DNA from: Hoplostethus atlanticus
Taxonomy: Eukaryota > Chordata > Actinopteri > Trachichthyiformes > Trachichthyidae
Direction of reading: 5' to 3'
Length of the DNA stretch: 64,000 nucleotides
Assembly: GCA_034670405.1 (NCBI GenBank)
Contig: JAXDDX010000058.1
Span: 186,001 to 250,000 of the forward strand
The position numbers and the translations under genes are program-made. Position 1 is the stretch's first letter. Each line of letters starts with the position of its first letter. A model generated the notes under the pieces. That model was not told where the DNA came from, made no database searches, and saw nothing but the letters and a program-made list of their open reading frames with translations. This document shows, one piece after another, positions 2,883-64,000 of the stretch.

Positions 2883-25466
<22,584 letters not shown>

Positions 25467-26770
25467 ACACACAGAGAGGAAGATGGAGAGGATGAGATAG
25501 TCATGTAACATTCCATCAATTTTCGACTCCATTCCGCATTTCAAGCTGTAAAATCTTATTCCCTATGGAAAAGGGGATTAACTTAATACTTGTACCCTTG
25601 TTTATTTTCTTCAAAGGCACAACTTTCTTTCTGTAATGTCTCTTTTTAAGATGAGAAAGTCATTCTGAACCCATCGCCTCCTTTGTATCTCCTGCTTTGA
25701 TTGCAGAATTTTCTTCCGGGAATTATTTTTGACCACTTTATAGAAAGAATGGACAATTACTATATTTAGAAAACACCCACAGGAACCTCAGATTTGGTCA
25801 CTCAAGAACTCAAGTTATATTATAAGTGAATATAGGTTCTATCTTGATCTCTCGATTTCAATGCATATACTGTAGATGACATTGGGTTTTGCCCAGTCTC
25901 CAGTAGTGTGGCTCCCAAGCGCCACCTAGAGGTTAGTCAACAGTTTTTGTAATCATAATCATGACGTGCCACCTACACACAAACATATGCAGTGGGCTCC
26001 TCTGTGCCTGTCTCAGCAGTATGCTCCTAAATGCATCTGTTTGTGTGTAAACATCATGGTCAAATGGACAGGTGCCGTCTCGTGGAAAGGTTTCACGTCA
26101 TTTCTAGCGCTCACTGTAAAATAACGTTATGTAGTCAGATGTAAAAACCTGCTGCTCCATATCAATATCTGTGAGGCTTCTTCAAACATCAGGCACACTT
26201 CATACACTAGAAAGCAATAACTTCTCTGCCAATCCTAGATGATCCTGAAGCCTACATGCTTCAGGATACAATCGGCGCACAACCTGTGTATGTTTATATT
26301 GAGACCTGTGCATTTGTGTCTTGGACTTACACATATTTTCTTCGATGTACCACCTTTCCATGAGCTTGACCTGACCACTTTTCCTACATTCCTACAATTT
26401 TCCATAATGAATAGTCATATTTCCTATGGTATTATGTGATCGACCAAAACCCAAAACCACTGGATCTTCAGTCAAGTTTTATAAACCATGGATAATTATT
26501 GTATATAGTAGAACAATGTTAGGTATTATTAATGAAAAGTTGTATTGCTCCGATTTTTTACACCACTTCTGTTTGGCAGGGGAACTCTCGAAACCAAAGA
26601 AGACGCATAACAGAGACAATAAACCTTTAAAATGTTATATTGTTGTTTGTGAAGGTCATCGTGGTTTTATCTCATTCTTAGGCCATGTAAAAGCCTCACA
26701 TTTGACTGAACCTTTGAAATATTTCATTCCCCCCTTATTTCAACCTAATAAATTTTTTTTTTTACAGAAA
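25467..26770 (+). other. tpm4: tpm4 3' UTR with polyadenylation signals
   Basis: There is no gene after the exon 9d stop up to the convergent S27-like gene. AATAAA occurs at 26618-26623 and 26747-26752. The second is followed by a T run and fits a distal 3' end. The exact cleavage site is inferred. Confidence 0.5.
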
Positions 26771-27127
26771 TAATGACTTTTATATTTTGTGCACTCAATA
26801 TTTTAACGACAAAAATGACAAAATGTTTTGTACATACAGGACAAGCAGTCACCATTTTTACATTCAGGGCGAATTCCACATTAAGTGCCACATCAGATCA
26901 ATCCGTTACAAATAACATTTTACAAGATAATCTGAGTTTATAGAGATTCTCTATAATTTAGATCAAGTTAAGAGACAATTTCTCTGATAAAGAGAGTTCT
27001 GTATGGTGAAAACAACACGATGCCACAAAAATCAGGAGTCAGGAATGGTACCGAAAACTCATTCATCTAGCCATGGTCCATGCTGATGCCAGTCAATGGC
27101 TCTCTGCTGACTTTTGCACTTTTCTGC

Positions 27128-28360
27128 TCAGGATTTCCTTCTGAAGGAGCAGCCTACATGGAGAAAAGTCAGAAGAACAAACATTTCAATAAGTCATTGT
27201 AGACAAAACACTGAGTAGAAGACAGGACTTTTCCCCAAGCTGTGTCCTCTGATACTTGGTCATCTCACCAATGTAATTACACCTTGATGTTACCTGGCAA
27301 GAACTACAGTGGATGAGCAAGAAGGGTGCAGTGCACAGGGCAGTTTGGTTTGCTTCAACAAAAATGGACAGTAAATAAGCGCGAGCATGCAATTGAAATT
27401 AATTGTGCTCCACAAACATGATACTAGACTGGGAAGTGAGTCTTCCAATAGGGAGCCAGGGATCCAAGAGAAAGGACAATAACATTTTTGTAACCCTGTT
27501 TGAAAAGTGCTACACAAATAAACTACTATTTATTATCACAACATGTAAGAATGGGGAGACAGTACTGTCAAAGCGTATCTGAACTGGAGATGAAACGTAA
27601 TGTGTTTGTGATCTTGCGCACCACTGTTGTTACAATATAACTCACCTGCAGTTAGTCGACATTTGCCCCCCTGAGGCTGGCAGAGGATGATGGAGCAGCC
27701 CCCACAAGGCACCACTGCCTGGGCATGGCTGAAAATGGTGGTGATCCTGTAGCAGCCTGGGGAGCAATTAAAGAAGGATGAGAGATCACTTTTAAACGTT
27801 TGATTGATCAATCCAAACAGATTTCAAGAGATAACCACCACTGTGATCTCTGGGGTTGAAAACTGCTGTGGTGTGGTAGTCACCCACTGCTTACTTGGGC
27901 ATTTAACATCCATGAAGTATGAGTTGGGGCTCTGCACCAGCCTCTTTTTCTTGTGTTTTCTCTTCTCATCGACAAAACTGGGGTGCATCAGATCCTTAGC
28001 CAACTGCAATGGAGATCAGAACATGAACGAGCCAATGAGGGTTTGTTAAATGTTGATGTTATAACCCCTCCCCCTACAGTCTGATGAGTGAACTGCTAGT
28101 ACACAGAGACATGCCCGTGCATGTCCTGGCATCATTCATATAAGTTATACACAGATCCTGGCATATTTACTTATTATTGGTCTATTTTCGATTATACCAT
28201 AATATATGTGTGTATCTGTACTTAACTGATGTCATTCTGTTTCTATCGATCTATCTATGTGTTGCTCAATTATTAATCACTTTTTGTACAGCTTTATCTC
28301 AGGCAGTCAAAACATTCTAACATTTCCACCAGCAATTAAACGTAATTTACTTACAGGCAT
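27128..28360 (-). CDS. Divergent ribosomal protein S27-like (eS27 family) paralogue
   Basis: Four coding exons on the minus strand: 28360-28355 (Met-Pro, donor GTAAGT), 28003-27895, 27756-27646 and 27153-27128 (stop TGA). All borders are GT-AG and give 83 residues; the family usually has 84. The N-terminal half has the eS27 signature [20 protein letters not shown]. The zinc ribbon keeps both CxxC pairs (CPSC and CGGC). The intron positions, including the tiny Met-Pro first exon, are those I recall for vertebrate RPS27, so this is a gene duplicate and not a retrocopy. The second half differs from the almost invariant family sequence at many sites, and the C-terminus ends GCSFRRKS. It could be a lineage-specific rps27 or rps27l paralogue, or an early pseudogene with intact splicing. 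It converges on tpm4 and is head-to-head with rab8a. Confidence 0.8.
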
Positions 28361-28950
28361 TTTAAAAAAAAAATCCAAATCACTCAATTTGTTCGTCCAA
28401 GTCGATTGCAATGCAAAAGTAAAAGACTGTGAAGAGATCCTGTTTTGCGCCTCTGAAATGACTGTCTGATAGTGTTGTACCGGAATAGCCCGAGCAGGCG
28501 GAGTTCCACCTTTAACGGGATAAACAACTCCACCGATTCAATTTATCAAGTAATAAAAACGCAATTCTAGATAAGCTGCAATGTATTTGGCTCTATGAAA
28601 CCAACTAACTCCTCCCATATGTTGCTGTTGTGTACTTTCAGCCTTTGGTTTCTATTCATGGCAATTGCCTTGGAGTGCAGTAGGACCAGCCATGTCACGT
28701 GTATATTAGACTTGGGTTTGAGGTAGAGATTAGCAAATGTTTCTTGGTTAGCTGTCGCAGCGCTTTACACTTTTGCCCAAAAAAGAATAGGATTTATGCA
28801 GAGAATGTAATTAGTGGCTCCCCATATTTGAATGAATATAATCTTGTATCAGTGAAATACGTTGGAAGAATTTATCAGCACTTCAGCTCCTCTATCCTAA
28901 AACAGTCAATGTTTGCAAAGCCCATATATAAACGATTAAACACATCAATG

Positions 28951-29220
28951 CAATTTGAGACGACGCTGAACTTGGTTTCGGATTCATAGTTTCGGATTCG
29001 GCAGTTAAGGGGAAAGTTAAGGGAAATTTATTGCTGAGCGACGATCCTCCGTTTTTTGCACCTCTTACAAAAACCACTGTACATAGACCTGTCAAATCTG
29101 GACTAGATTATCCCAGAGGGGTTAAAGATTCCTTAAAACACAGTTTTAGATTTGTGAAACCTTTACTCTATGAATGTGACTCTGTGAATCCGAAACCAAC
29201 TTCAGCGTCGTCAATTTGAG
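28951..29220. mobile_element. 252-bp MITE with 9-bp target-site duplication
   Basis: The element at 28960-29211 has 30-bp terminal inverted repeats starting ACGACGCTGAA, which match at 28 of 30 positions. CAATTTGAG flanks it directly at 28951-28959 and 29212-29220. Nine-base duplications suggest a Mutator-like mobiliser. There is no coding capacity. It lies between the S27-like gene and rab8a. Confidence 0.8.
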
Positions 29221-29531
29221 CGTCAATCTATACAGATGATCAAAATAAAGCCAACTGGGACAGAGCGAGGGGCTTACATGACATCACCAATCAATAGGAA
29301 ACTCTCCTGAGCCTGATGAGCTATCACTCATGTCAATGAAACTTTAGGATCAATAGATATAGATGATGAAAATACAGCCAATTAGGAAAGGTGAGTGGAT
29401 TAAATGGCATCACCAATCAATAGGACACTCTCTCCTCCAACTCTGTGCCTTCAGGTTTGTTGTGCTGAGTCTGATGGACTGTCACTCACGCAAAAGCGAC
29501 TTTGGGATCAATAGATACAGGTGATATCCAG

Positions 29532-30768
29532 CATAGACATATATACATAGACGCCGCATTGACTGCTTCTGCCCATTGCTACGATACGTAAACGTCGCCG
29601 CCATATTGGTTCGGGCAAGACTGGCCTGTAAACAATTACAAGTGAACGGGGAGCTGCGGTTTTTCTGGATGAAAAGCACTATAACGTTTACATTTCTCAA
29701 CCGATTTCAATGAGTCCTTTTTTATATTCAAGGGTTTATGATCTACGTGGAGTAGAAAAAAAAGTTTTGTCTCCAGTTACTTAGTTAGGCTATAATCGCT
29801 GCTAGACGCCCAAGAGAGCAGTGTCAACGTTAGGCTCACATGAACTAAATTACTTACGTGGTGGAAAATAATTCATTGTCATAAGGCATTGTAAAAACTC
29901 AGGTTTGTCAAGCATGGATTTGGCTTATTTTCCTTGGTTAATACTTGTGGAGACGTCCATATATAATATAAATGAATGTACATGAAATGTGTAGAAAGTT
30001 ATTTTTCTGTCCATGTCCCCATCATTTTAGCTTTTCTTGTGCTCCAGGTCAGAACACAGCTCATTCACTTTGAAATACTGGGGGGGGGAAATCTAAATAG
30101 CGCATTTTTAAGTACTAATAATTGACCATCATTGAGAAAAATGGAACAAAATCGGCAAATACAAATTACAATAGTGAGACACTGGCAGTCAGTCTGCTTT
30201 CTATATTTGTATAGCAGTGAAAGGATACAGATATACTCCAAGACAGACAATTAAAGACAAAGACAATTATAAGATAAGATACACCTTTATTGATCCCCAG
30301 AGGGAAAATAAAGAGGGAAAATTCAAATGGCATATAATCAAGATTTTCATCTATATTTATATATCTATATTTCTCCAAACCTATTTTTATGACAAGCTAC
30401 TCGTTTCGGCTAAGCGGCTGACATATTATGAATCTGACTGTAGTTAGCTGGCTAGCTAACTTTTCTCACACTTTGAAGGTTTCCCAAAGAGAAAGAGTTG
30501 ATACACAGCGATTATAGATTAACGATCGAGATTCTAAGTAACTGGAGACAAAACTTTTTTTCCCTACTCCACGTAGAGCATAAACCCTTGAATATAAAAA
30601 CGGCTCTCGGTTGAGAAATGTAAACATTATAGTCCTTTTCATCCAGAAAAACCGCAGCTCCCCGTTTACTTGTATTTGTTTACAGGCCAGTCTTGCCCGG
30701 TCCAATATGGCGGTGACGTTTACGTACGATCCACAGGCCAATGCGGCGTCTATGTATATATGTCTATG
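29532..30768. mobile_element. 1.24-kb inverted-repeat (foldback) element with 8-bp target duplication
   Basis: The ends are a perfect 30-bp inverted repeat beginning CATAGACATATATACATAG. Homology between the arms then continues, with gaps, to about 29810 on the left and 30475 on the right. ATATCCAG flanks both ends (29524-29531 and 30769-30776). Eight-base duplications fit hAT or P-type transposases. No transposase is seen. The middle carries a TTTATTGATCCCC fragment (about 30286) shared with other repeats in the window. Its right end lies 225 bp before the rab8a start codon. Confidence 0.8.
30702..30713 (+). promoter_or_regulatory. YY1-like site in the element arm next to rab8a
   Basis: CCAATATGGCGG contains the YY1 core ATGGCGG in a good context. 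The mirrored copy is at 29598-29609 in the other arm. It is about 280 bp before the rab8a start codon. Binding is inferred from the motif only. Confidence 0.4.
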
Positions 30769-30776
30769 ATATCCAG

Positions 30777-30992
30777 TGCCTCAAACTATGAATTGCGAAA
30801 GCTCATGGCCAACCGGGCGACCAATGATAACAAAACATGCAAACCCAATAGAATCGAAACGGATTTCCGGAGCCACGACGACAGAGAAGAGTGACAGTTT
30901 CCGTGGCCAATCCGCAATCCCATAAACTGACAATCGGTGACGTCTTTGGCCTCGCAGAGCAGACGGGCGGGATATCCGCAGTAGCTAATAAC
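30777..30992 (+). promoter_or_regulatory. rab8a: rab8a promoter and 5' leader
   Basis: A TATA-less, housekeeping-like stretch with CCAAT at 30821-30825, 30845-30849 and 30907-30911, an ETS-type ATTTCCGG at 30863-30870, and a CRE-like TGACGTC at 30938-30944. It fills the gap between the inverted-repeat element and the start codon. The transcription start is not determined. Confidence 0.5.
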
Positions 30993-33900
30993 ATGGCGAA
31001 GACTTACGATTACTTGTTTAAACTGCTTTTAATCGGCGATTCAGGCGTCGGAAAGACCTGTGTGCTATTCAGATTCTCAGAAGATGCCTTCAACTCAACG
31101 TTTATCTCCACTATAGGTTGGTATATTTGGCATTATTTGTGCTGTCTAGGCCGAAAAGTGTTACTGGAGCAGCCCATCCCGTCATGCTAATATATTGCTA
31201 ACTTTTTGGCTAGCAATCATTATGTAGTGGCTAGCCAGGAAGCAGCCTTACCGGCTTGTTACAGGGTACTTGATTAAGGCCAACAAGTTACGTTACAGTC
31301 CAGACTTTGCCAAAACTGTCAAAGCGATTTTAGCAAGTCATGATCCCTGGAAAGCTACTGACTATCTTAACTACAGCTTGGGTGGGGTACCCAGCTGAAT
31401 TAGCAGACTACAAAGCTGTCAAGTGATCTACTTAACGTTACCCAGTCTCATTTTCCACATGAGCCAACGTGTTGCACTTCCTACTGTAGTATTGCAAGTA
31501 TGAATGAATTCGACAACCATTTTCTTCTGTATGCAAACATTAATACTGTTATTACTAGGATGGTGAGTTGTTTTTGCCGGGTGTCCATGAAGATCACACT
31601 CATTTGCTGAGCTTGAACTGTTTTGTTTTTCTCTTATTTCCCTTAGGTATAGACTTCAAGATCAGAACAATAGAACTAGATGGGAAGAAGATCAAGCTAC
31701 AAATATGGTAAGAGAGTGATACAAAATCAAGTATGGTCACTTCAGAACTTGAAAGTAAAATGGAAAGTAAAAAAAAAAAAAAGAAGTGGAAAGTAAAATA
31801 AATGGTAAATTGCTGCATTTATATAGCGCTTTTATCCAAAGTGCTTTACAATCTATGCCTCTCATTCACCCATTTACACACACACTCACACACCGATGGC
31901 AGTGAGCTACCATGCAAGGTGCTAGCCTGACCATCGGGAGCAATTTGGGGTTCAGTGTCTTGCCCAAGGACACTTCGACATGTGGACTGGAGGAGCTGGG
32001 GATCGAACCTCCGATATTCTGATTAGAGGACGACCCGCTCTACCTCCTGAGCCACAGCCGCCAGAAAGTATTATAGGATGGGATGGTAGAATGGCACAAT
32101 GCAAAGATGTCTCTGTACATCTGCTTTGGTACCCCACTCATATCTCTTGACATCACTGGCCACTCCACATTCTTCCATGTAGTAAATATAGCAGTATGGT
32201 GCTTGAAAGAGTACCGACCCTAGATACATCTGGCCAACAAGTCCAGATTATGGTTGTGTCCATTGAACATGTCATCTGTATGGTACATCTTTATCCCAGG
32301 CAAATACCAAAACATTAAACCATGCGATGTAAACCATATTTTATAGCAAACAGAATGCACTGTGGGTATGACTCTGGCCTGGGCATTGTGGTTTACTTTG
32401 GCTTGGTTCAGCAAGGTAAAGATGAAAAACGTCTCTCTCATCTAGGGATACAGCAGGGCAGGAGAGGTTCAGAACCATCACAACAGCCTACTACAGAGGA
32501 GCCATGGTAAGTTGCCCTGTGGGCCGTACATCTCAATAGAATGGATGTTCCCATGTCAATGGTAACTGAACTGAGGGATTGGTGGTCATCTCAGGTGTGA
32601 GCACTATTTAATTATCCGTAGCTCACTGTACACTCTTTCCACAATCACGCTCTGTATTGTTGTTAATGATTTCTTACATACTTGGGTAATCGAAAAGGTG
32701 TGCCCAACGCTTTGCCATGGAATCTTGGTATGACTCTTTTTCAGTTCAGGCTCAACTGGATGCCTGTGTCTGTTGATTGTTGTTGCCTTTGCTATTGAAG
32801 GACCCATTTTAACTTGGTCCCACGATATCATGTGGTCCACCAATAATAAAGCTAAAATAAAGATGATGAATGTGACTATGACACCTCTGACCAGACATGA
32901 AAGGCTAACATGGTCAGAAGAAAATCATGTTAAGCACTCTACTTCCATCACTGTTTCATTGGACTAAGAGCCAGTGAGGGATGATTCCATTGTTGTTTGG
33001 CATCTCTATATTGATGTCTACCATCTATTACCTTTCCAGGGCATAATGTTAGTGTATGACATTACCAACGAGAAGTCGTTTGACAACATCAAGAACTGGA
33101 TACGGAATATTGAAGAGGTAAAATATTAGTTACATTGGTTTATATGTCCGTGGGAGTATGTTTGTGTGTGTGCCACTGTTCATACAAATACATAGTTATA
33201 CAACTGTTTTATTGCATGATCGAGTGTATTTTATTGTGTTGATATTCTATTTATGAGGTACCACCTGAACAGTCATAGTTTTTACACACATTTTGTTACT
33301 GATCCCTCCCCTGTCTGTTTGCTATGCCTACTTCCCCTCCACAGCATGCCTCAGCAGATGTGGAAAGGATGGTCCTTGGGAACAAATGTGATGTCAATGA
33401 CAAACGACAGGTGTCCAAAGAACGAGGAGAGAAGGTGGGATCATGTGACTTGACAGATGAAAGCATATAAAGTAGAATCTTGATCTCCTGGGGTGGCCTT
33501 ATGAGTTATTGTACTTAAGCTGTCTGAGTACTAACAGTGTGTCTGTTTCTTATCTCCTGCCATCAGCTGGCATTGGAGTACGGTATCAAGTTCATGGAGA
33601 CAAGTGCAAAGGCCAACATCAACGTGGAGAATGTGAGTTCACTTCCTTTGTAGTCACTCATTCACAGTCTAGAGCAGTGTTGCCCAGTGTTGGGCCTGGG
33701 GGCCAAACGTGCCCCTCAACCAGCAATATTTTGTCTGTTTTGATACAGTTCATATCTTAGTAGTGATTTTGACATTACTTTCTACAAGGCCTAATGTTGA
33801 TAAAAGACCTAAGAAGCTATCATTTAAAAATAATCAATGTAACAATTTTGGCCCACTCACCCATTTTACATTCCAACCAATGGGTATCCCTGATCTAGCG

Positions 33901-34202
33901 TCACTACCATTTCTGTGATGCTCTGATTCACCTACTTTTTTGTCTGCAGGCCTTCTTGACTCTTGCCAGAGACATCAAGGCAAAAATGGACAAGAAGCTG
34001 GTAAGAATTTGGAAGACTGACAATATTAATTGGAGTGGGTGCTTTCTTTTGTATGTGGTGTAATGGTGTTATTGTTGTTCTCTTATTTGGTTGTTTTCTT
34101 ATGTGTGTATTTTAGGAGGGCAACAACCCACAGGGCAGCAGTCAAGGGGTGAAGATCACAGAACAACCCAAGAAGAGTTTCTTCCGCTGCACGCTCCTGT
34201 GA
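30993..34202 (+). CDS. rab8a: Rab8A small GTPase
   Basis: A Rab-family GTPase that directs trans-Golgi and recycling vesicles to the plasma membrane and the cilium. Eight exons: 30993-31116, 31647-31707, 32446-32506, 33040-33117, 33345-33434, 33567-33632, 33950-34000 and 34116-34202. They total 205 residues; human RAB8A has 207. The N-terminus [20 protein letters not shown] is the Rab8 signature. GDSGVGKT is the P-loop, [12 protein letters not shown] is switch [10 protein letters not shown] is switch II, NKCD and TSAK bind guanine, and the C-terminal CTLL is a CaaX-type prenylation site (geranylgeranylation). The neighbours tpm4 and hsh2d match human 19p13 order and favour rab8a over rab8b. 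Nothing is missing or shifted. Intron 2 holds a SINE and intron 6 a hAT-like MITE. Confidence 0.96.
31803..32066 (-). mobile_element. tRNA-derived SINE in rab8a intron 2
   Basis: On the minus strand a tRNA-like head has box A (TGGCTCAGGAGG, near 32055) and box B (GGTTCGATCC, complement at 32000-32009). It is followed by a conserved body and a tail containing CTTTGGATAAAAGCGCTATA. This whole unit is a common teleost repeat. It is antisense to rab8a. Confidence 0.8.
33675..33892. mobile_element. hAT-like MITE in rab8a intron 6
   Basis: The left end reads CAGTGTTGCCCA and the right end, read inward, reads CAGGGATACCCA, the usual hAT terminal pattern. The flanks GTCTAGAG (33667-33674) and ATCTAGCG (33893-33900) match at six of eight bases, as an aged 8-bp duplication would. 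Confidence 0.65.
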
Positions 34203-37340: not shown

Positions 37341-38254
37341 ACTGCTCAAAGAAATTAAGGGAACACTTAATCATCACAGTATAACACCAAGTCAATTAAA
37401 CTTCTGGGATATCGATCTGTCCAGTTAGGAAGCGTAAACAATTGTGAATCAATTTCACCTGCTTTGGTGCAAATGAAAGTGACAACAGGTGGACAGGAGA
37501 GGCAACAGCAAGACAACCCCCAAAAAGGAAATGGTTTTGCAGGTGGTGGCCACAGACCATTTCCCTCTCTCCTTATCCTTCCTGACTGATTTTTCTCTAG
37601 TTTTGCATTTTGCTAGTGTCCCTTGTCACTACTGGTAGCATGAGGCGGTACCTGCAGCCCATTCAGGTTGCACAGGTAGTCCAGCTCCTCCAGGATGGCA
37701 CATCCATACATGCCGTCGCAAGGTTTGCTGTGTCTCCCAGCAGTCTCAAGAGCGTGGAGGAGATACCGGGAGATGGCCATTACACGAGGAGAGCTGGACA
37801 GGGCCGTAGAAGGGCAACAACCCAGCGGCAGGACCGGTATCTGCTCCTTTGTGCGAGGAGGAACAGGAGGAGCACTGCCAGAGCCCTACAAAATGACCTC
37901 CAGCGGGCTACTCGTGTGCATGTTTCTGACCAAACTGTCAGAAACAGACTCCATGAGGGTGGCATGAGGGCCCGACGTCCTGTAGTGGGACCTGTGCTCA
38001 CAGCCCAGCAGCTCGATTGGCATTTGCCAGAGAACACCAGAATTGGCAGGTTCGCCATTGGCGCCCCGTTCTCTTCACAGATGAGAGCAGGTTCACACTG
38101 AGCACATGTGACAGACGTGAAAGAGTCTGGAGACGCCGTGGCGAACGTTATGCTGCCTGCAACATCTCCAGCATGACCGGTTTGGCGGTGGGTCAGTGAT
38201 GGTCTGGGGAGGCATATCCTTGTGTTCCCTTACTGCTCAAAGAAATTAAGGGAA
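37341..38254 (+). pseudogene. Tc1/mariner-like transposon, 3'-deleted and rearranged
   Basis: The left end ACTGCTCAAAGAAATTAAGG is a Tc1-type terminal repeat. Downstream, the plus strand encodes the N-terminal half of a Tc1-like transposase ([17 protein letters not shown] helix-turn-helix block from about 37655, then [18 protein letters not shown]-like and TDESRF), with frameshifts near 38000-38060. The C-terminal DDE half is absent. The right side (38222-38254) ends in GTTCCCTTA joined to a second copy of the terminal repeat in direct orientation. Confidence 0.75.
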
Positions 38255-42094: not shown

Positions 42095-44852
42095 ATGGAG
42101 GGGGGCCAGTCGCAGGAGCAACACGACACTGCCTTTACCTGGTTCACAGAGTTTCAGCTCCAGTCTGTGATCAGGAATGGAGTAGTTCCTGAATGGTTCC
42201 ATGGTATTATTTCCAGGAAGTAAGTACTCCATCACTGTCTGTCATCTGCTGGAATGGATGGCAAACAGAGGAATGTTGAGGGCCATGTTTTTTAAATTCT
42301 ACATGATAAGGCGTCAGCTTTGTGTACATGCAGAGTGATCAAGCATGATTACTTAATTACTCCACTTAAGTAACTAACTTTCAAAGGAAGAATGGTTCCC
42401 TTTGTTAAATCACAAGGACAAAATATTGTACTTTTGATACATAATTATATTTAATAGCAAATATTTCAGTTCTTATCATCACTTACATATTGCTCTTACT
42501 TAAATAAAAAGAAATGCCTCCTCCACAGCCTGTGTATCTAATGCAATAAAACTCTGTTTGATGTGTAATATTTGTAAACCAGCATGAAGCACTGAACACA
42601 TTGCTTTCCTTTATTGACAACATTATAATGCATGGTATTTTTTTGACCACCCTATGGAATGAATACATCCATACATGTTAAGAATGTGTTGTTGTAATGA
42701 GTTGATTGCTAACATAATGTCTTTTTGTGTGTGGTAATTTGGTCACGTTATTCCCCTCTGTAGGACTGCAGAGGACCTGTTGCTGTCCAAGCCTCCAGGC
42801 TACTTCCTCATCCGAGTCAGTGAGAGCAGGATTGGCTACACTCTCTCATATCGGTGAGTGTTTGCAGTATAAAGGGTCCCTTATTTACCCTCAACAATCC
42901 CATTTCAAATGCATTTTCACTATAGCCAAGTTAACTCCGTGCAGGTTCATTTATAGAGCGCTTTTAGACTGTTGCAAAGTGCTTTACAGAAAACAAAGGA
43001 TAAAACCAGGATAATAACACGGATAATAAAAATGCATGGCACATATGCATGGCACATATGGTTTTATAAACAAACACTCTACAGTATTTTTTGCCGCTCC
43101 ATCAGCTTCTGCTCCGTCCTACAGTTCAAAATCCTGCCCTGTTTCCTCATCCTGATGATCAAATTCTTATTTCAACCTCTCTCTGTAGCGTTGAGGACCG
43201 TTGCAGACATTTTATGATCGATGCTCTGAAGGATGGACATTACGTCATTGTGGGGGAGAATACACGTCACCGGCTTCTGCAGGACCTCGTGGACTTTCAC
43301 CGCAGGACTCCCATTATGCCTTTCAACGAGGTGCTGACTGTCGCCTGTGGACAAGTAAGGAAATGTTACTCTACATCCCTATAGGATCTATGTGCATATG
43401 CGCTTGAACCTGAAACTGAATCAGATTCACTGTATCACAAAGCACAAAGTTTGCTTTCAACGTCTGCACTATATAAACGAAGAACAAACATAATCACACT
43501 ATCAATTGCATCTAGTGAGTTTGTCTTGTACGTTTCTACTTGTCAAACAAGGTTAACCAACATCTGCTCTGTCTCTCTCTCACTGATCTTATTGAAGATC
43601 TCAAAGGACAAGACTGATTATGCAGAGCTGCTTTTTCCCCAAAGGCATGTGACAAACCCTAACATCAGTCCTCTACTAAACGACTCCCTGCATCCCAACA
43701 ACAAGAGTCACCTGAAACCACAGGAAGATATCCCACCTGCTCTTCCTCATCGACCAGATACACTGAGCTCTGGACTCCCATCTCCACATGTTACCAAGAT
43801 GCCTAACAGCCAGCCAAACACACTTTACCCTTGTCTGGAAGATGAAGTGTCACACTTCATGTCTCAAATCCCAGCCACGGTAATAAAGATGCTTCTAAAT
43901 TGTCTTGGGTATTGTTTGGTAGAAGAATTGTTTTATTGGTGTACTTGATGTCATGTTTTAGTGCTTTAGAAGTCTTCCTATTGCTCACCAATTGAGGCCA
44001 TTCTTAAGACATCCAAATGGTTTTGATGGCAACAAATGCTAACAGGAGTCTGGTGCCAGTTCCTTTGAAGAATAAACCCTGGGAACAAAGCATTTTGAAT
44101 GGCCTAAAAGGGAGCTTAGTTAATGATCACTAGGATAGGCTTTTACAAAAACCTGACCTTTCCCTTTTAAATCCAGAGACTTTACTGCGGTTAAAGGCTT
44201 GAAGTGAAATCATTGTCTTGTGGCAGTGTAAGTTTCTTTCAAAAAACCTTTCTCTCAGTTTGTGATTTATATATATAAAATGAAGTCCTTTTATTTGTTA
44301 ACAAATTTCTATGTTGTGTTTTTCATATTTATGCTCTCAAGCCTGTGCCATTGCCCAGGAAGAGATATACTGCCAACACCACCCAACCAGACCAGCCTCC
44401 TGAAGTCCCTGCTAGGAGCCCTATACCACCACAGAAGCAGAACCAGGCTTGCACCAGAACTAACTCTGCACCTGAGAGTCCCTCAGCATTGGGAAGACTG
44501 GTCACACAGTCAGCTGGACAAGAGGATGACCACCCCCACAGTGCCAACAGCCAGTCAGGAAGGAACCAGGACGTGAAGCCTGGCTGTGGTCATCAACCTA
44601 ACTAACCTCAAGAAAAGGTTCCAGAAGAAGAGGAGCACATCAGAGGAGCATATGTACGCCGAGATCAGTGTGGAGGCCGAGGAGAGGCAGAAAGAGAGGC
44701 TGGAGAATGGAAATACTGAGAATGAGTACCAGGAGCTTTCGGGGGAGCAGACCATCGAAGGGGTTTCCACCCCTGGCACTACTATGACACTGACTGATAG
44801 TGGGTTACCTCAGGAGTACCTACCACCTCCACCTTTTGCCCCCGGCTACTGA
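42095..44852 (+). CDS. hsh2d: Haematopoietic SH2 domain-containing protein (apparent frameshift)
   Basis: A cytosolic SH2 adaptor of leukocyte signalling. Coding exons: 42095-42219, 42764-42853, 43189-43354, 43598-43879 and 44342-44852. The SH2 domain spans about residues 30-128: WFHGIISRKTAEDLL start, FLIRVSES (the FLVRES arginine), GYTLSYR, then the EDRCRHFMI strand. A Pro-rich middle follows. The C-terminus LPQEYLPPPPFAPGY matches the human HSH2D end closely. In the last exon the frame that continues from exon 4 stops at TAA 44603-44605. The conserved tail from INLTNLKKRF onward lies in the next frame, open only from 44577. One extra base (or two missing) in 44577-44605 would explain it. 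Without it the product stops at about 307 residues. Synteny with rab8a supports the call. Confidence 0.85.
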
Positions 44853-45934: not shown

Positions 45935-47920
45935 AGATTCAATTCAAGATTCAAGATTCAAGAAGTTTAATTGTCACATACACACACGAGGTGTGCAGTG
46001 AAATGTAAAGTGGCAATGCTCAGCAGAAATGTGCAAAATAACAGGTTCACACTATTTACAATAAACCAACACAATATTTACAATGTCACAGTTTTAAGAG
46101 CTCTATATAAAAAACAACACAATATTTACAATAAGAGCACTTTATAAAAATATAGTAAAAAAGGGAAGGGAAATTGTATGTATAATATAATATAAATTAT
46201 AAATTATGTGTAGTCTTTACCTAAGTGTGTGTGTGCATAAGAGGGGCAGTGTGTGTGTCTTGGTGGGGGCCCTGGTGAGGTCAGAGTTCACAGTCCTGAT
46301 GGCCTGAGGAAAGAAACTCCGTCTCAGTCTCTCTGTTTTGGCAGCGTGACTACGGAGGCGCTTGCCTGACCGCAGCAGCTGAAACAGTCCGTTGTTGGGG
46401 TGGTGAGGATCCTTCATGATCCTGCAGGCTCTGGTTCTGCACCTCCTGGTGTATAAGTCCTGCAGGGTGGGGAGTGTAGTTCCAATAGTGCGCTTCAGCC
46501 GAACGCACTACTCTCTGCAGAGCCTTCCTGTCCTGAGCGGAGCTGTTGCCAAACCAGGCAGTGATGCTTCCTGTCAGGATGCTCTCTACAGCTCCAGAGT
46601 AGAAGGACTGAAGGATCCTCCGAGAGACTTTAAATTTCCTCAGTTGCCTGAGGTGGTAAAGGCGCTGCCTTGCCTTTCTCACCAGAGTGTCTGTGTGTGA
46701 GGACCATGTAAGATCCTCGGAGATGTGGACTCCCAGGTATTTATACCTGCTCACCCTCTCCACAGTATTCCCATTAATCCCCAATGGTGCGTACGTCCTC
46801 TGTTGTTGTGTCCTCCTAAAGTCCACAATCAGCTCCTTAGTTTTGGTGACGTTCAAGAGGAGGCTGTTGTCCTGGCACCAGAGTGACAGATCAGCGACTT
46901 CCTCCAGGTAGGCCTTCTCGTCGTTGTTGGAGATCAGGCCCACCACCACTGTGTCATCCGCAAACTTAATGATGGAGTTGGAGCTGAACCTGGCCACACA
47001 GTCATGTGTGTACAGGGAGTACAGTAGGGGGCTGAGGACGCAACCCTGGGGGGATCCTGTGTTCAGGGTGAGGGGGTTGGAGGTGTGTCTACCCACCCTG
47101 ACCACCTGGGGCCTGGCGGTCAGGAAGTCCAGGATCCAGGCACACAGGGGGGTGTTCAGTCCCAGCTCAATCAACTTGCCAGCCAGTCTGGTGGGGACTA
47201 TGGTGTTGAAAGCTGAACTATAGTCCATGAACAGCAGTCTCACATAGCCCCCCTTCCGGCTGTCCAGATGAGAGAGTGTGGTGTGCAGTACCTGGGAGAC
47301 AGCATCATCCGTGGATCTGTTGGGACGATAAGCAAACTGCAGCGGGTCCATGGAGCAAGGGAGGAAGGCGCAGATGTAGTCCTTTATCAGCCTCTCGAAG
47401 CATTTCATGACCACCGAGGTGAGGGCCACCGGTCGGTAGTCATTCAAGCATGCTGGAGAAGCATTCTTGGGCACAGGGACAATAGTGGATCTCTTGAAGC
47501 AGGCGGGGACCACAGACTCAGCCAGGGAGATGTTGAATATAGTGGTGAACACTGGAGCTAGCTGATTAGCACAGGTCTTCAGTACTCGCCCAGATATGCC
47601 ATCTGGACCAGCAGCTTTCCTGGTGTTCACCCTCGTCAGAGCCCTCCTCACACTGTGCTCAGGTCACAGAGAGTGTGTGTTCGTCCCCAGCGGTAGAACT
47701 CACTCCGGCTGCGCTAACGGTGATGTTGTTAGCCGGCGAGCTAGCGCTGTTGTTGCTAGCCTCAAACCGTGCATAGGATGAGTTCAGGTCCTCCGCTAGG
47801 GATGCGTCGGCACTCACAATTGCGGGGGGTCTGCCCTGGTAGTCCGTTATAGTCCGTAGCCCCAACAGGTCCCTTGCCTTCTCGTCACACACCTGGGCTG
47901 GAGCACGACTCTGAAACGAC
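45935..47920 (-). mobile_element. 5'-truncated L2/Rex-clade non-LTR retrotransposon
   Basis: The minus strand encodes most of a reverse transcriptase (47651 to about 46495). Motifs in order are [56 protein letters not shown] and the catalytic FADDT, then [15 protein letters not shown] one-base frameshift near 46497 moves the tail ([17 protein letters not shown]-like) to another frame. Upstream residues (about 47890-47650) are also out of frame. The 3' end, at low coordinates, carries short TTGAATC tandem units, the tail style of fish L2-type LINEs. It is antisense to the flanking genes and no longer codes for a working protein. Confidence 0.85.
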
Positions 47921-58463: not shown

Positions 58464-59575
58464 CACTGATCAGCCACAACATTAAAACCACTGACTGGTG
58501 AAGTGAATAACATCGATTATCTTGTTACAATGGCACCTGTCAAGGGGTGGGATATATTGGGAAGCAAGTGAACAGTCAGTTCCTGAAGTTGATGTGTTGG
58601 AAGCAGGAAAAATGGGCAAGTGTAAGGATCTGAGCGACTTTGACAAGGGCCAAATTGTAATGGCTAGACGACTGGGTCAGAGCATCTCCAAAACGGCAGG
58701 TCTTGTGGGGTGTTCCCGGTATGCAGTGGTTAGTACCTACCAAAAGTGGTCCAAGGAAGGACAACCGGTGAACCGGCGACAGGCTATCCCGTCTGCTCCG
58801 ATCCCACAGAAGAGCTACCATAGCACAAATTGCTGAAAAAGTTACTGCTGGCTATGATATAAAGGTGTCAGAACACACAGTGGGGCTGCGTAGCCGCAGA
58901 CCAGTCAGAGTGCCCATGCTGACCCCTGTCCACCGCCAAAAGTATGAAGGTAAATATGTTGCAAAATGTGAGAACTTGTAGAACAAAAATATGAACTCGT
59001 ATGTTTAAATTTTCACTTGTATAAAATATTCACACACACGTGAGCTGAATTTGAAGTCACAGAAAAAAAAAAACACATTAGAGCTTGTAGAAAAAATGTG
59101 AACTTTTTGAAATTTTCTCATAGAAAATATTCACACCCGTGTTCTGAAGTCACAGAAAAAATATTCACAAATGTGTAGATTGATATTTACATAAATACAA
59201 TGACAGCTGCAAAAAAGGCACGTGAGCGTCAGAACTGGACCATGGAGCAATGGATGAAGGCAAGGATAATGCGCCCTGCCACACGGCAAAAAATTGTTCA
59301 TGAATGGTTTGACAAAGAGTTCAAGGTGTTGACTTGGCCTCCAAATTCCCCAGATCTCAATCTGATTGAGCATCTGTGGGATGTGCTGGAAAAACAAGTC
59401 CGATCCATGGAGGCCCCACCTCGCAACTTACAGGACTTAAAGGATCTGCTAACGTCTTGGTGCCAGGTACCACAGGACACCTTCAGAGGTCTTGTGGAGT
59501 CAGAGCTGTTGTGGCAGCACAAGGGGGACCTACACAATATTAGGCAGGTGGTTTTAATGTTATGGCTGATCGGTG
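58464..59575 (+). mobile_element. Tc1-like transposon with a replaced core, in slc1a6 intron
   Basis: Terminal repeats begin CACTGATCAGCCACAACATT on the left and CACCGATCAGCCATAACATT on the right (read inward), flanked by TA on both sides (58462-58463, 59576-59577). The N-terminal DNA-binding part starts at 58612 ([20 protein letters not shown]). The C-terminal part runs from about 59200 (TWPPNSPDLNLIEHLWDVLE). Between 58950 and 59195 the transposase is missing, replaced by AT-rich tandem sequence. A frameshift lies near 58790. It is not functional. Confidence 0.85.
58960..59175. repeat. Diverged tandem units inside the Tc1-like element
   Basis: Two or more units share the order TTGTAGAAC/AAAAAA, TGTGAACT, AAATTTTC, TAGAAAATATTCACAC, GTGTTCTGAAGTCACAGAAAAA. 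The unit is about 75-85 bp. The array stands exactly where the catalytic centre should be. Confidence 0.6.
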
Positions 59576-59577
59576 TA

Positions 59578-59581
59578 TGTG

Positions 59582-59612
<31 letters not shown>

Positions 59613-59647
59613 TGGTCTCTGTCTGTGCCTGTGTTTGGGTGACCGTG

Positions 59648-59691
<44 letters not shown>

Positions 59692-62800: not shown

Positions 62801-63802
62801 ATATGTACTGCAACTACTACTATTTCATGTCATACAGTATATTAAAGTTTTTTTCCACAGAACATACTCTTCAAATTCATTCAAGACATTGCCTATTAAC
62901 TAAACTACATTTATTTAGAAAATGTCATCAAGCACATGATTATCATCCAGAAATTTGAAAAGAAAGTCATGAAATGTGAATTACACAAGACCATTAACAT
63001 GTTTCTGACTATGTTTTACTCTCCCTCTCCCTCCCTGCCTGCCTCCATCTTTCTCCCCCCCTAGTTTCCCACGAGACCTGCCTCCTGGACCAGGTGCTGG
63101 AGCTGATTATGAATGAGAAGCCCCCGACCAGTGCCAGTCTCTTTCTGAACGAGGACACGGACAAGCCCCCACTGCCGGAGCGAGGAAACCTGAGGAGGTG
63201 CTTACGCAGGGCCATGGAGAGGAGAGCCAGTAGTGTGAAGGAGAGGATGAGCTCCATCACCAGGGACAGCGTGAAAGGTTTCCTCAAGAGGAACCTGTTC
63301 GTTCTGTTCACCATCGCAGCTGTGGCTCTGGGTCAGTGGAGAGGGAAACCTGGTTTATTTGAGGACAATGGTGGTGGTGGCAGTGATGATGATGATGATG
63401 ATGATGATAGTGATGATGGTTATGTTTTGTTACCAGCTTTTTTCACTGCTTTCTCTGCACTTAGTGAGTGTTTTCATACAGTTTGCCCTTTCCCATTTCC
63501 ATGTTTTGTGTTTAGCTGCCAGATTGTGCATGCTTCATCCACTGTATATGTTTTCTCATGATTTAATCAACACTTGCACTGTGTGTGTGTGTGTGTGTGA
63601 GTGTGTGTGTGTGTGTGTGCGTGCGTGTGCGTGCGTGTGCGTGTGCGTGTGCAATTGTTTTCAGGTGTCATCCTGGGCTTTGCTCTACGCCCCCACAACC
63701 TGTCCCTGAGGGAGATCAAGTACTTTGCCTTTCCTGGGGAGCTCCTAATGAGGATGTTACAGATGCTGGTGCTACCACTCATTGTCTCCAGTCTGGTCAC
63801 AG
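59893..63802 (+). CDS. slc1a6: Excitatory amino acid transporter, 5' part (EAAT4-like); continues past the window
   Basis: A sodium-coupled glutamate/aspartate carrier of the plasma membrane. Coding exons seen: 59893-59899 (Met-Ser plus one base, donor GTGAGT), 63065-63331 and 63665-63802. They join in frame. After [12 protein letters not shown] comes a long cytosolic N-terminus with SASLFLNED, similar to the SLFLRE of human EAAT4. The first membrane helix is [20 protein letters not shown]. The SLC1 hallmark [20 protein letters not shown] and LIVSSLVTG follow. EAAT1 is the nearest alternative and the fish-only slc1a8/9 cannot be excluded. SLFL and the 19p13-like neighbourhood favour slc1a6. 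Transport-domain and HP1/HP2 exons lie beyond the window. A splice acceptor at 59845-59846 probably opens the first coding exon. Confidence 0.8.
60922..61075 (+). mobile_element. tRNA-derived SINE in slc1a6 intron
   Basis: Box A-like TGGCTGTAGCCTGAAAG is followed by box B-like GGTTTGAATCC (60978-60988). A body follows with GAGCAAGGTACTGAAC, common in teleost SINEs. The remainder of 59900-63064 shows no gene. Confidence 0.6.
63385..63420 (+). repeat. (GAT)n trinucleotide repeat
   Basis: A GTG/GAT tract in the slc1a6 intron after the second coding exon. It would read as poly-Asp, but it is past a clear splice donor (63332). Confidence 0.9.
63580..63652. repeat. (GT)n/(GC) microsatellite just before a splice acceptor
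   Basis: GT/GTGC units end at 63652, only 12 bases before the slc1a6 acceptor TTTTCAG (63664). The pyrimidine tract of this acceptor is therefore short. Confidence 0.9.
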
Positions 63803-64000
63803 GTTGGCCTTCAATGAGCATAGAAGAACAAAAACACCCAATACTCCCAATACTCAACAATAGATGCTGGCCAGAACCTAAAATAGGAAGAAAACGTTGA
63901 GCTTGGACATTGTATTGTACCTCCAAAGTGAATGAATATTACTAAAGCTACACCCGGTAGCTTCACATGTTGGAGGCTCCAAATGGCATAGATACAGATA

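What the first reader, a model, noticed from the sequence alone, without database searches (positions are those of the whole stretch)
27128..28360. Divergent, intron-bearing S27 (eS27) paralogue with an altered second half and C-terminus
Vertebrate RPS27 and RPS27L differ from each other at only a few residues. This copy differs from my recollection of the human sequence at roughly 17 of 84 positions. The changes cluster after the conserved [11 protein letters not shown] core, and it ends FRRKS with no final His. Both CxxC pairs and all six splice sites, including the two-codon first exon, are intact. Intact structure with rapid change in a normally frozen protein suggests a specialised ribosomal protein (for example germline or stress-specific) or a gene at the start of decay. 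This is the best candidate here for something undescribed.
Basis: partly seen in the sequence, partly recalled or inferred. Interest (0 to 1): 0.72.

Follow-up and report, generated by a model that had tools for sequence, protein, structure and literature searches.

The report
Third vertebrate copy of ribosomal-protein S27
This fish-like genome carries a third, unusually changed but intact copy of a small ribosomal-protein gene; its neighbours suggest it is an old whole-genome-duplication twin of two genes that people still have, and people appear to lack this one.

Summary
A four-exon eS27 gene lies on the minus strand (28360-28355, 28003-27895, 27756-27646, 27153-27128), with GT/AG sites, four zinc-ribbon cysteines, no internal stop, and 83 encoded residues: 16 substitutions against human RPS27 plus one missing residue. 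Its neighbours are informative: TPM4 (+), this gene (-), RAB8A (+), HSH2D (+). RAB13 flanks human RPS27 and RAB8B flanks RPS27L (PMC2687790), so this copy fills the matching slot beside RAB8A. It is most likely a third ohnologue of the early vertebrate duplications. Against a recalled human RPS27 CDS, dS is about 2.5 and dN 0.14, so an old pseudogene is unlikely; but 7 of 46 positions invariant in 13 PDB eS27 sequences are changed, so constraint is altered or recently relaxed. A divergent, short halibut cDNA, RPS27-4 (PMC1933418), may be the same gene, so such copies are not wholly undescribed; I found no paper placing one at TPM4-RAB8A in the listings and passages seen. Expression, orthologues, tree position and ribosome incorporation were not tested; the own-genome search did not complete.

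The parts
28355..28360 (-). eS27 exon 1 coding part: ATG CCT, donor GTAAGT
   Evidence: sequence
27895..28003 (-). eS27 exon 2 (N-terminal arm and the first CxxC up to its third residue)
   Evidence: tblastn
27646..27756 (-). eS27 exon 3 (rest of the zinc ribbon; most substitutions)
   Evidence: tblastn
27128..27153 (-). eS27 exon 4 coding part (GCSFRRKS, first codon split with exon 3) and stop TGA
28431..28436 (-). possible start site in a pyrimidine tract CTCTTC (5'UTR would be 76 nt); inference only
   Evidence: short tract, could be chance
2883..24484 (+). TPM4 gene (two alternative first exons at 2883 and 8691; last coding exon found 24401-24484)
   Evidence: tblastn with recalled human TPM4, TPM1, TPM3
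30993..34199 (+). RAB8A gene; 191 of 207 aligned positions as recalled human RAB8A, 172 of 207 as RAB8B
   Evidence: Pfam Ras on exon 1
42134..44849 (+). HSH2D-like gene (three SH2-region exons and a C-terminal motif)
   Evidence: tblastn with recalled human HSH2D; Pfam gave no hit on 43070-43381 and 43385-43945
62998..63819 (+). start of an SLC1A3/SLC1A6-like glutamate transporter gene
   Evidence: tblastn; no Pfam hit on 62998-63558

Best explanation
The gene is a third vertebrate eS27 paralogue, the RPS27 ohnologue of the TPM4-RAB8A-HSH2D paralogon, left by the early vertebrate genome duplications and apparently absent from the human gene set. It most likely makes an eS27 protein that folds as the usual zinc ribbon and is built into a minor share of 40S subunits. 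Its retention is best explained by expression (dosage in some tissue or stage), with looser constraint on the second half of the protein. Shown: intact gene, protein family, neighbours. Inferred: age, selection history, expression, incorporation into ribosomes.
For: Intact four-exon gene and 83-aa protein; Pfam and PDB membership. Order TPM4(+)-eS27(-)-RAB8A(+)-HSH2D(+). RAB13 flanks RPS27 and RAB8B flanks RPS27L in human (PMC2687790 passages); RPS27/RPS27L are accepted 1R/2R ohnologues (PMC10313321 section 5). Teleosts have one 3R region with tpm4a and hsh2d and another with tpm4, rab8a and cib3 (PMC12111056 passage); a sole BAC holds tpm4, rab8a, cib3 and slc1a3 (PMC6236887 passage). Against the recalled human RPS27 CDS pS is 0.72 (dS 2.5) and dN 0.14 over 82 codons. 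In 5000 simulated unconstrained copies with 15 amino-acid changes, 48% kept no stop, 40% the four Cys, 0.26% residues 15-38 and 0.06% all three (the core was chosen after seeing the data). Halibut RPS27-4, seen as one EST, is of similar divergence, 78.0% to human RPS27, two residues short.
Against: No orthologue from another species was fetched and no tree was built, so the ohnologue reading rests on local gene order. A pairwise dN/dS over such distance mostly reflects past constraint on both lineages and cannot show selection now. Changes are as common at family-invariant as at variable sites (7/46 against 8/36 over the first 82 residues, Fisher p 0.57), which suggests weakened constraint. 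Upstream CpG content is only moderately raised (top 9-11% of 500-nt windows, against the top 0.2-0.7% for the RAB8A start). No AATAAA or ATTAAA within 850 nt after the stop, only variants such as AATATA. The published gene lists of sole BAC 5K5 name no rps27. PMC2687790 calls the human RAB/RPS27 pairs tail to tail, whereas here the genes are divergent (heads facing); I recall the human pairs as divergent, so that point is unsettled. LACTB, the other RPS27L neighbour in human, was not found in the window.
Confidence: 0.7

Rival explanations
1. A specialised eS27 (germline, larval or stress form) whose changed second half gives 40S subunits a distinct property, kept by positive or lineage-specific selection.
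For: Seven positions invariant in the 13-sequence set are changed (L8M, G39S, V46I, T61I, T67Q, A71C, E75A) while residues 15-38 and all four zinc ligands are kept. dN in residues 39-82 is 0.16, against 0.02 between the recalled human RPS27 and RPS27L. Tilapia RPS27-1b, another copy, is higher in XX than XY gonads though weakly expressed (PMC7072992 passages).
Against: No expression data. Mouse Rps27 and Rps27l are interchangeable (PMC10313321 section 11 part 1). No sex- or stage-specific RP gene was found in tilapia gonads. Relaxed constraint predicts the same pattern.
Confidence: 0.2
2. An old ohnologue that has recently lost constraint and is at the start of decay, with its open reading frame not yet broken.
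For: Changes fall on invariant sites as often as on variable ones; lost last residue; only moderate CpG enrichment upstream; no canonical poly(A) signal found; humans lack a copy at this place (recalled).
Against: No internal stop, frameshift or splice-site loss; residues 15-38 unchanged; dS saturated with low dN. A similarly divergent copy is transcribed in halibut, if it is the same gene.
Confidence: 0.18
3. A teleost-specific (3R) or lineage-specific duplicate of rps27 or rps27l that happens to lie here.
For: Teleosts do carry 3R duplicates of both genes (PMC7072992 passages, PMC10313321 section 5).
Against: It lies beside TPM4 and RAB8A, not beside RAB8B or RAB13; a chance landing next to the right Rab relative is unlikely.
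Confidence: 0.12

Closest known systems
Vertebrate RPS27 (eS27) and RPS27L ohnologue pair
   Same: Same protein family, three introns, zinc-ribbon cysteines, and a RAB8/RAB13-family gene next door (PMC2687790 passages, PMC10313321 section 5).
   Different: 16 and 18 substitutions in 83 residues against 3 in 84 between the human pair; 12 of 16 changes in the second half, whereas the human pair differ only at residues 5, 12 and 17; one residue shorter; sits at TPM4-RAB8A.
Atlantic halibut RPS27-4 (EST EB040256, PMC1933418)
   Same: Divergent (78.0% to human RPS27, 75.6% to RPS27L) with a shortened coding region (249 nt); here 80.7% and 78.3%, 252 nt. In both, similarity to RPS27 exceeds that to RPS27L by about two residues.
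Tilapia RPS27-1a, 1b, 2a, 2b (PMC7072992)
   Same: Four-exon eS27 genes in a teleost.
   Different: All 84 aa, read there as 2R plus 3R copies of RPS27 and RPS27L; no TPM4-RAB8A-linked copy is mentioned in the passages read (its main text has no hit for 'rab' or 'tpm' as word starts).

Membership tests
eS27 ribosomal protein family | Match to Pfam PF01667 and full-length similarity to 40S eS27 | tested here: met
   residues 28-82 on profile 1-55 of 55, E 1.6e-25; PDB eS27 chains E 1.6e-44 over residues 1-82
eS27 ribosomal protein family | Zinc-ribbon cysteines CxxC...CxxC | tested here: met
   C37, C40, C56, C59 present
eS27 ribosomal protein family | Vertebrate gene layout with three introns | tested here: met
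   Four exons with GT/AG sites; three introns in human and mouse genes. The two-codon first exon of the human gene is recalled.
eS27 ribosomal protein family | Incorporation into 40S subunits | not testable with these tools
   Needs mass spectrometry or ribosome purification
1R/2R ohnologue of RPS27/RPS27L | Location in a paralogon shared with the other copies | tested here: met
   TPM4-eS27-RAB8A-HSH2D against RAB13-RPS27 and RAB8B-RPS27L; the TPM3 and TPM1 neighbourhoods are recalled
1R/2R ohnologue of RPS27/RPS27L | Present at the same place in non-teleost jawed vertebrates, with tree position outside RPS27 and RPS27L clades | not testable with these tools
   No vertebrate collection reachable; own-genome search unanswered in eleven tries
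Pseudogene | Broken reading frame or splice sites | tested here: not met
Processed (retro) copy | Loss of introns | tested here: not met
   Three introns present

The most novel reading that the evidence does not exclude
Jawed vertebrates started with a third eS27 ohnologue at TPM4-RAB8A. Some fishes have kept it for some 500 million years as a distinct ribosomal protein with a re-tuned second half (extra Cys71, altered knuckle residues 39, 55 and 57, shortened tail) and a restricted expression, making a natural test of ribosome specialisation that human and mouse cannot offer.
Probability: 0.2. Interest if true: 0.65.

Novelty: new member of a known kind. Interest (0 to 1): 0.4.

Why it matters
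RPS27/RPS27L is one of four ribosomal-protein families said to have kept 2R duplicates (PMC7072992 passages), and in mouse the two proteins proved interchangeable (PMC10313321). A third ohnologue with real protein divergence would complete the family's history. It would also give an in vivo case where protein change, not only expression, can be tested as a reason for keeping a ribosomal-protein duplicate.

Tried and rejected
Processed pseudogene: rejected, introns present. Chance exons: rejected. A second eS27 copy in the window: only weak tblastn hits (E 0.48 and up outside the gene). RNA families in the window: none at gathering score. Relatives in viral contigs: 4 pattern matches, none confirmed. 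LACTB, CIB3, FAM32A and AP1M1 in the window: no tblastn hit at E 0.05 with recalled queries; lpl, reported near tpm4 in teleosts, was not searched for. Bacterial promoter scan of 26500-28600: uninformative, 6 found against 5.8 expected. Tandem repeats in 26000-31000: none. CpG argument for expression: weak. The zebrafish rps27.2 egg-quality paper (PMC6631549, passages) concerns a gene whose relation to this copy could not be tested. PMC11612004 held only a citation. Structure prediction was not run: the spliced protein is not read letter for letter from contiguous window DNA, which the tool asks for. The genome-contig collection was not scanned.

Full report
What is there. On the minus strand the window holds a complete eS27 coding region in four exons at exactly the coordinates given: 28360-28355, 28003-27895, 27756-27646, 27153-27128. 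Splice sites are GT/AG with good context. The 252-nt CDS is open and encodes 83 residues. Pfam Ribosomal_S27e matches at E 1.6e-25 and 57 distinct PDB sequences match at E up to 0.001, the best being 40S eS27 chains. Against human RPS27 there are 16 substitutions in 83 positions plus one missing C-terminal residue; against RPS27L 18 in 83.

How unusual the protein is. Human RPS27 and RPS27L differ at 3 of 84 residues, at 5, 12 and 17 (PMC10313321 section 5; PMC2687790 passages). Here 12 of 16 changes lie in residues 39-83 and none in 15-38. The split itself is not significant (Fisher p 0.09), and a change-free run of 24 or more has a chance of 0.034 under uniform placement. Using 13 eS27 sequences printed from the PDB (13 of 17 distinct printed, of 57 matched), 46 of 82 positions are invariant, and this copy changes 7 of those 46 and 8 of the 36 variable ones (Fisher p 0.57; residue 83 left out). 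So it does not respect the family's pattern of constraint, although all four zinc ligands are kept. The set is small and its members are related, so 'invariant' is a loose term here.

Neighbours. Before it on the plus strand lies a TPM4 gene (2883-24484): tblastn with recalled human tropomyosins scores TPM4 best or tied best at the six exons that all three queries share; the first exons at 2883, 4973 and 8691 could not be compared among all three, because the queries were different isoforms. Beyond it lies a RAB8A gene (30993-34199), with 191 of 207 positions as recalled human RAB8A against 172 for RAB8B, then an HSH2D-like gene (42134-44849) and, at the window end, an SLC1A3/6-like transporter. 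Published work places RAB13 beside RPS27 and RAB8B beside RPS27L in human (PMC2687790 passages). In teleosts one 3R region carries tpm4a and hsh2d and the other tpm4, rab8a and cib3, with rab8a also near the first in Euteleostei (PMC12111056 passage); this window has tpm4, rab8a and hsh2d together. I recall the human order as TPM1-LACTB-RPS27L-RAB8B on chromosome 15, RAB13-RPS27-NUP210L-TPM3 on chromosome 1, and TPM4-RAB8A-HSH2D on chromosome 19 without an RPS27 gene. The window gene fills that slot. The simplest reading is a third ohnologue of the early vertebrate duplications. One detail is unsettled: PMC2687790 describes the human pairs as tail to tail, while here eS27 and RAB8A are divergent.

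Selection. Against the recalled human RPS27 coding sequence, synonymous differences are near saturation (38.3 of 53.0 sites) and nonsynonymous ones low (24.7 of 193.0; dN 0.14); the recalled human pair gives dN 0.04. In residues 39-82, dN is 0.16 here and 0.02 for the human pair. A simulation of unconstrained change to 15 amino-acid differences kept the frame open in 48% of 5000 runs, the four Cys in 40%, the unchanged core in 0.26%, and all three in 0.06%; the core was chosen after seeing the data, and the frame and Cys results alone do not reject neutrality. If the gene dates from 1R/2R, long purifying selection is required. Recent relaxation remains possible, since a pairwise comparison over this distance cannot show selection now.

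What is already in print. Eight literature searches showed no account of an RPS27 gene at TPM4-RAB8A. I saw at most 20 listed papers per search (held 29, 26 and 206), and papers outside the open-licence library, figures and supplements were not seen. Atlantic halibut RPS27-4, known from one EST, is 78.0% similar to human RPS27, 75.6% to RPS27L, and two residues short (PMC1933418 section 7). That profile is close to this gene (80.7%, 78.3%, one residue short), so the two may be orthologous; its sequence and genomic place were not available, and its authors' tree puts it nearer RPS27-2. The tilapia survey lists four genes, all 84 aa (PMC7072992 passages). The eLife study counts three to six copies in most teleosts and does not describe this one in the parts read. 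Published gene lists of a Senegalese sole BAC of this region name no rps27, so it may be lost or overlooked there.

Regulation. A pyrimidine tract CTCTTC 76 nt before the ATG could be a TOP-like start. No AATAAA or ATTAAA occurs within 850 nt after the stop. Upstream CpG content is moderate. These hint at a weaker promoter than RAB8A's but prove nothing.

Limits. Expression, ribosome incorporation and the tree position are untested.

Noticed in passing
29532-29784 and 30534-30768: Inverted duplicate of the CpG-rich region just upstream of RAB8A (222 of 234 ungapped aligned bases identical, with gaps; blastn 86% over 254), pointing toward the eS27 gene about 1.2 kb upstream of its ATG; either a copied promoter or a foldback element.
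   Followed up: partly
28959-29525: Further short inverted and direct repeats between eS27 and RAB8A (41-nt inverted pair; 61-nt and 40-nt direct pairs), suggesting a nested repeat element.
   Followed up: no
46350-47663, minus strand: 437-aa open frame with a reverse transcriptase domain (RVT_1) and a following ALKBH8_N match, a LINE-type remnant by my reading.
   Followed up: partly
37601-38098 and 58507-59691, plus strand: Tc1/mariner-like transposase fragments (HTH_Tnp_Tc3_2 in the first; DDE_3 and a below-cutoff HTH_23 in the second).
   Followed up: partly
63664-63819: SLC1A-type transporter exon matches recalled EAAT4 (76.9%) and EAAT1 (73.1%) about equally, so SLC1A6 or SLC1A3 is unresolved.
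   Followed up: partly
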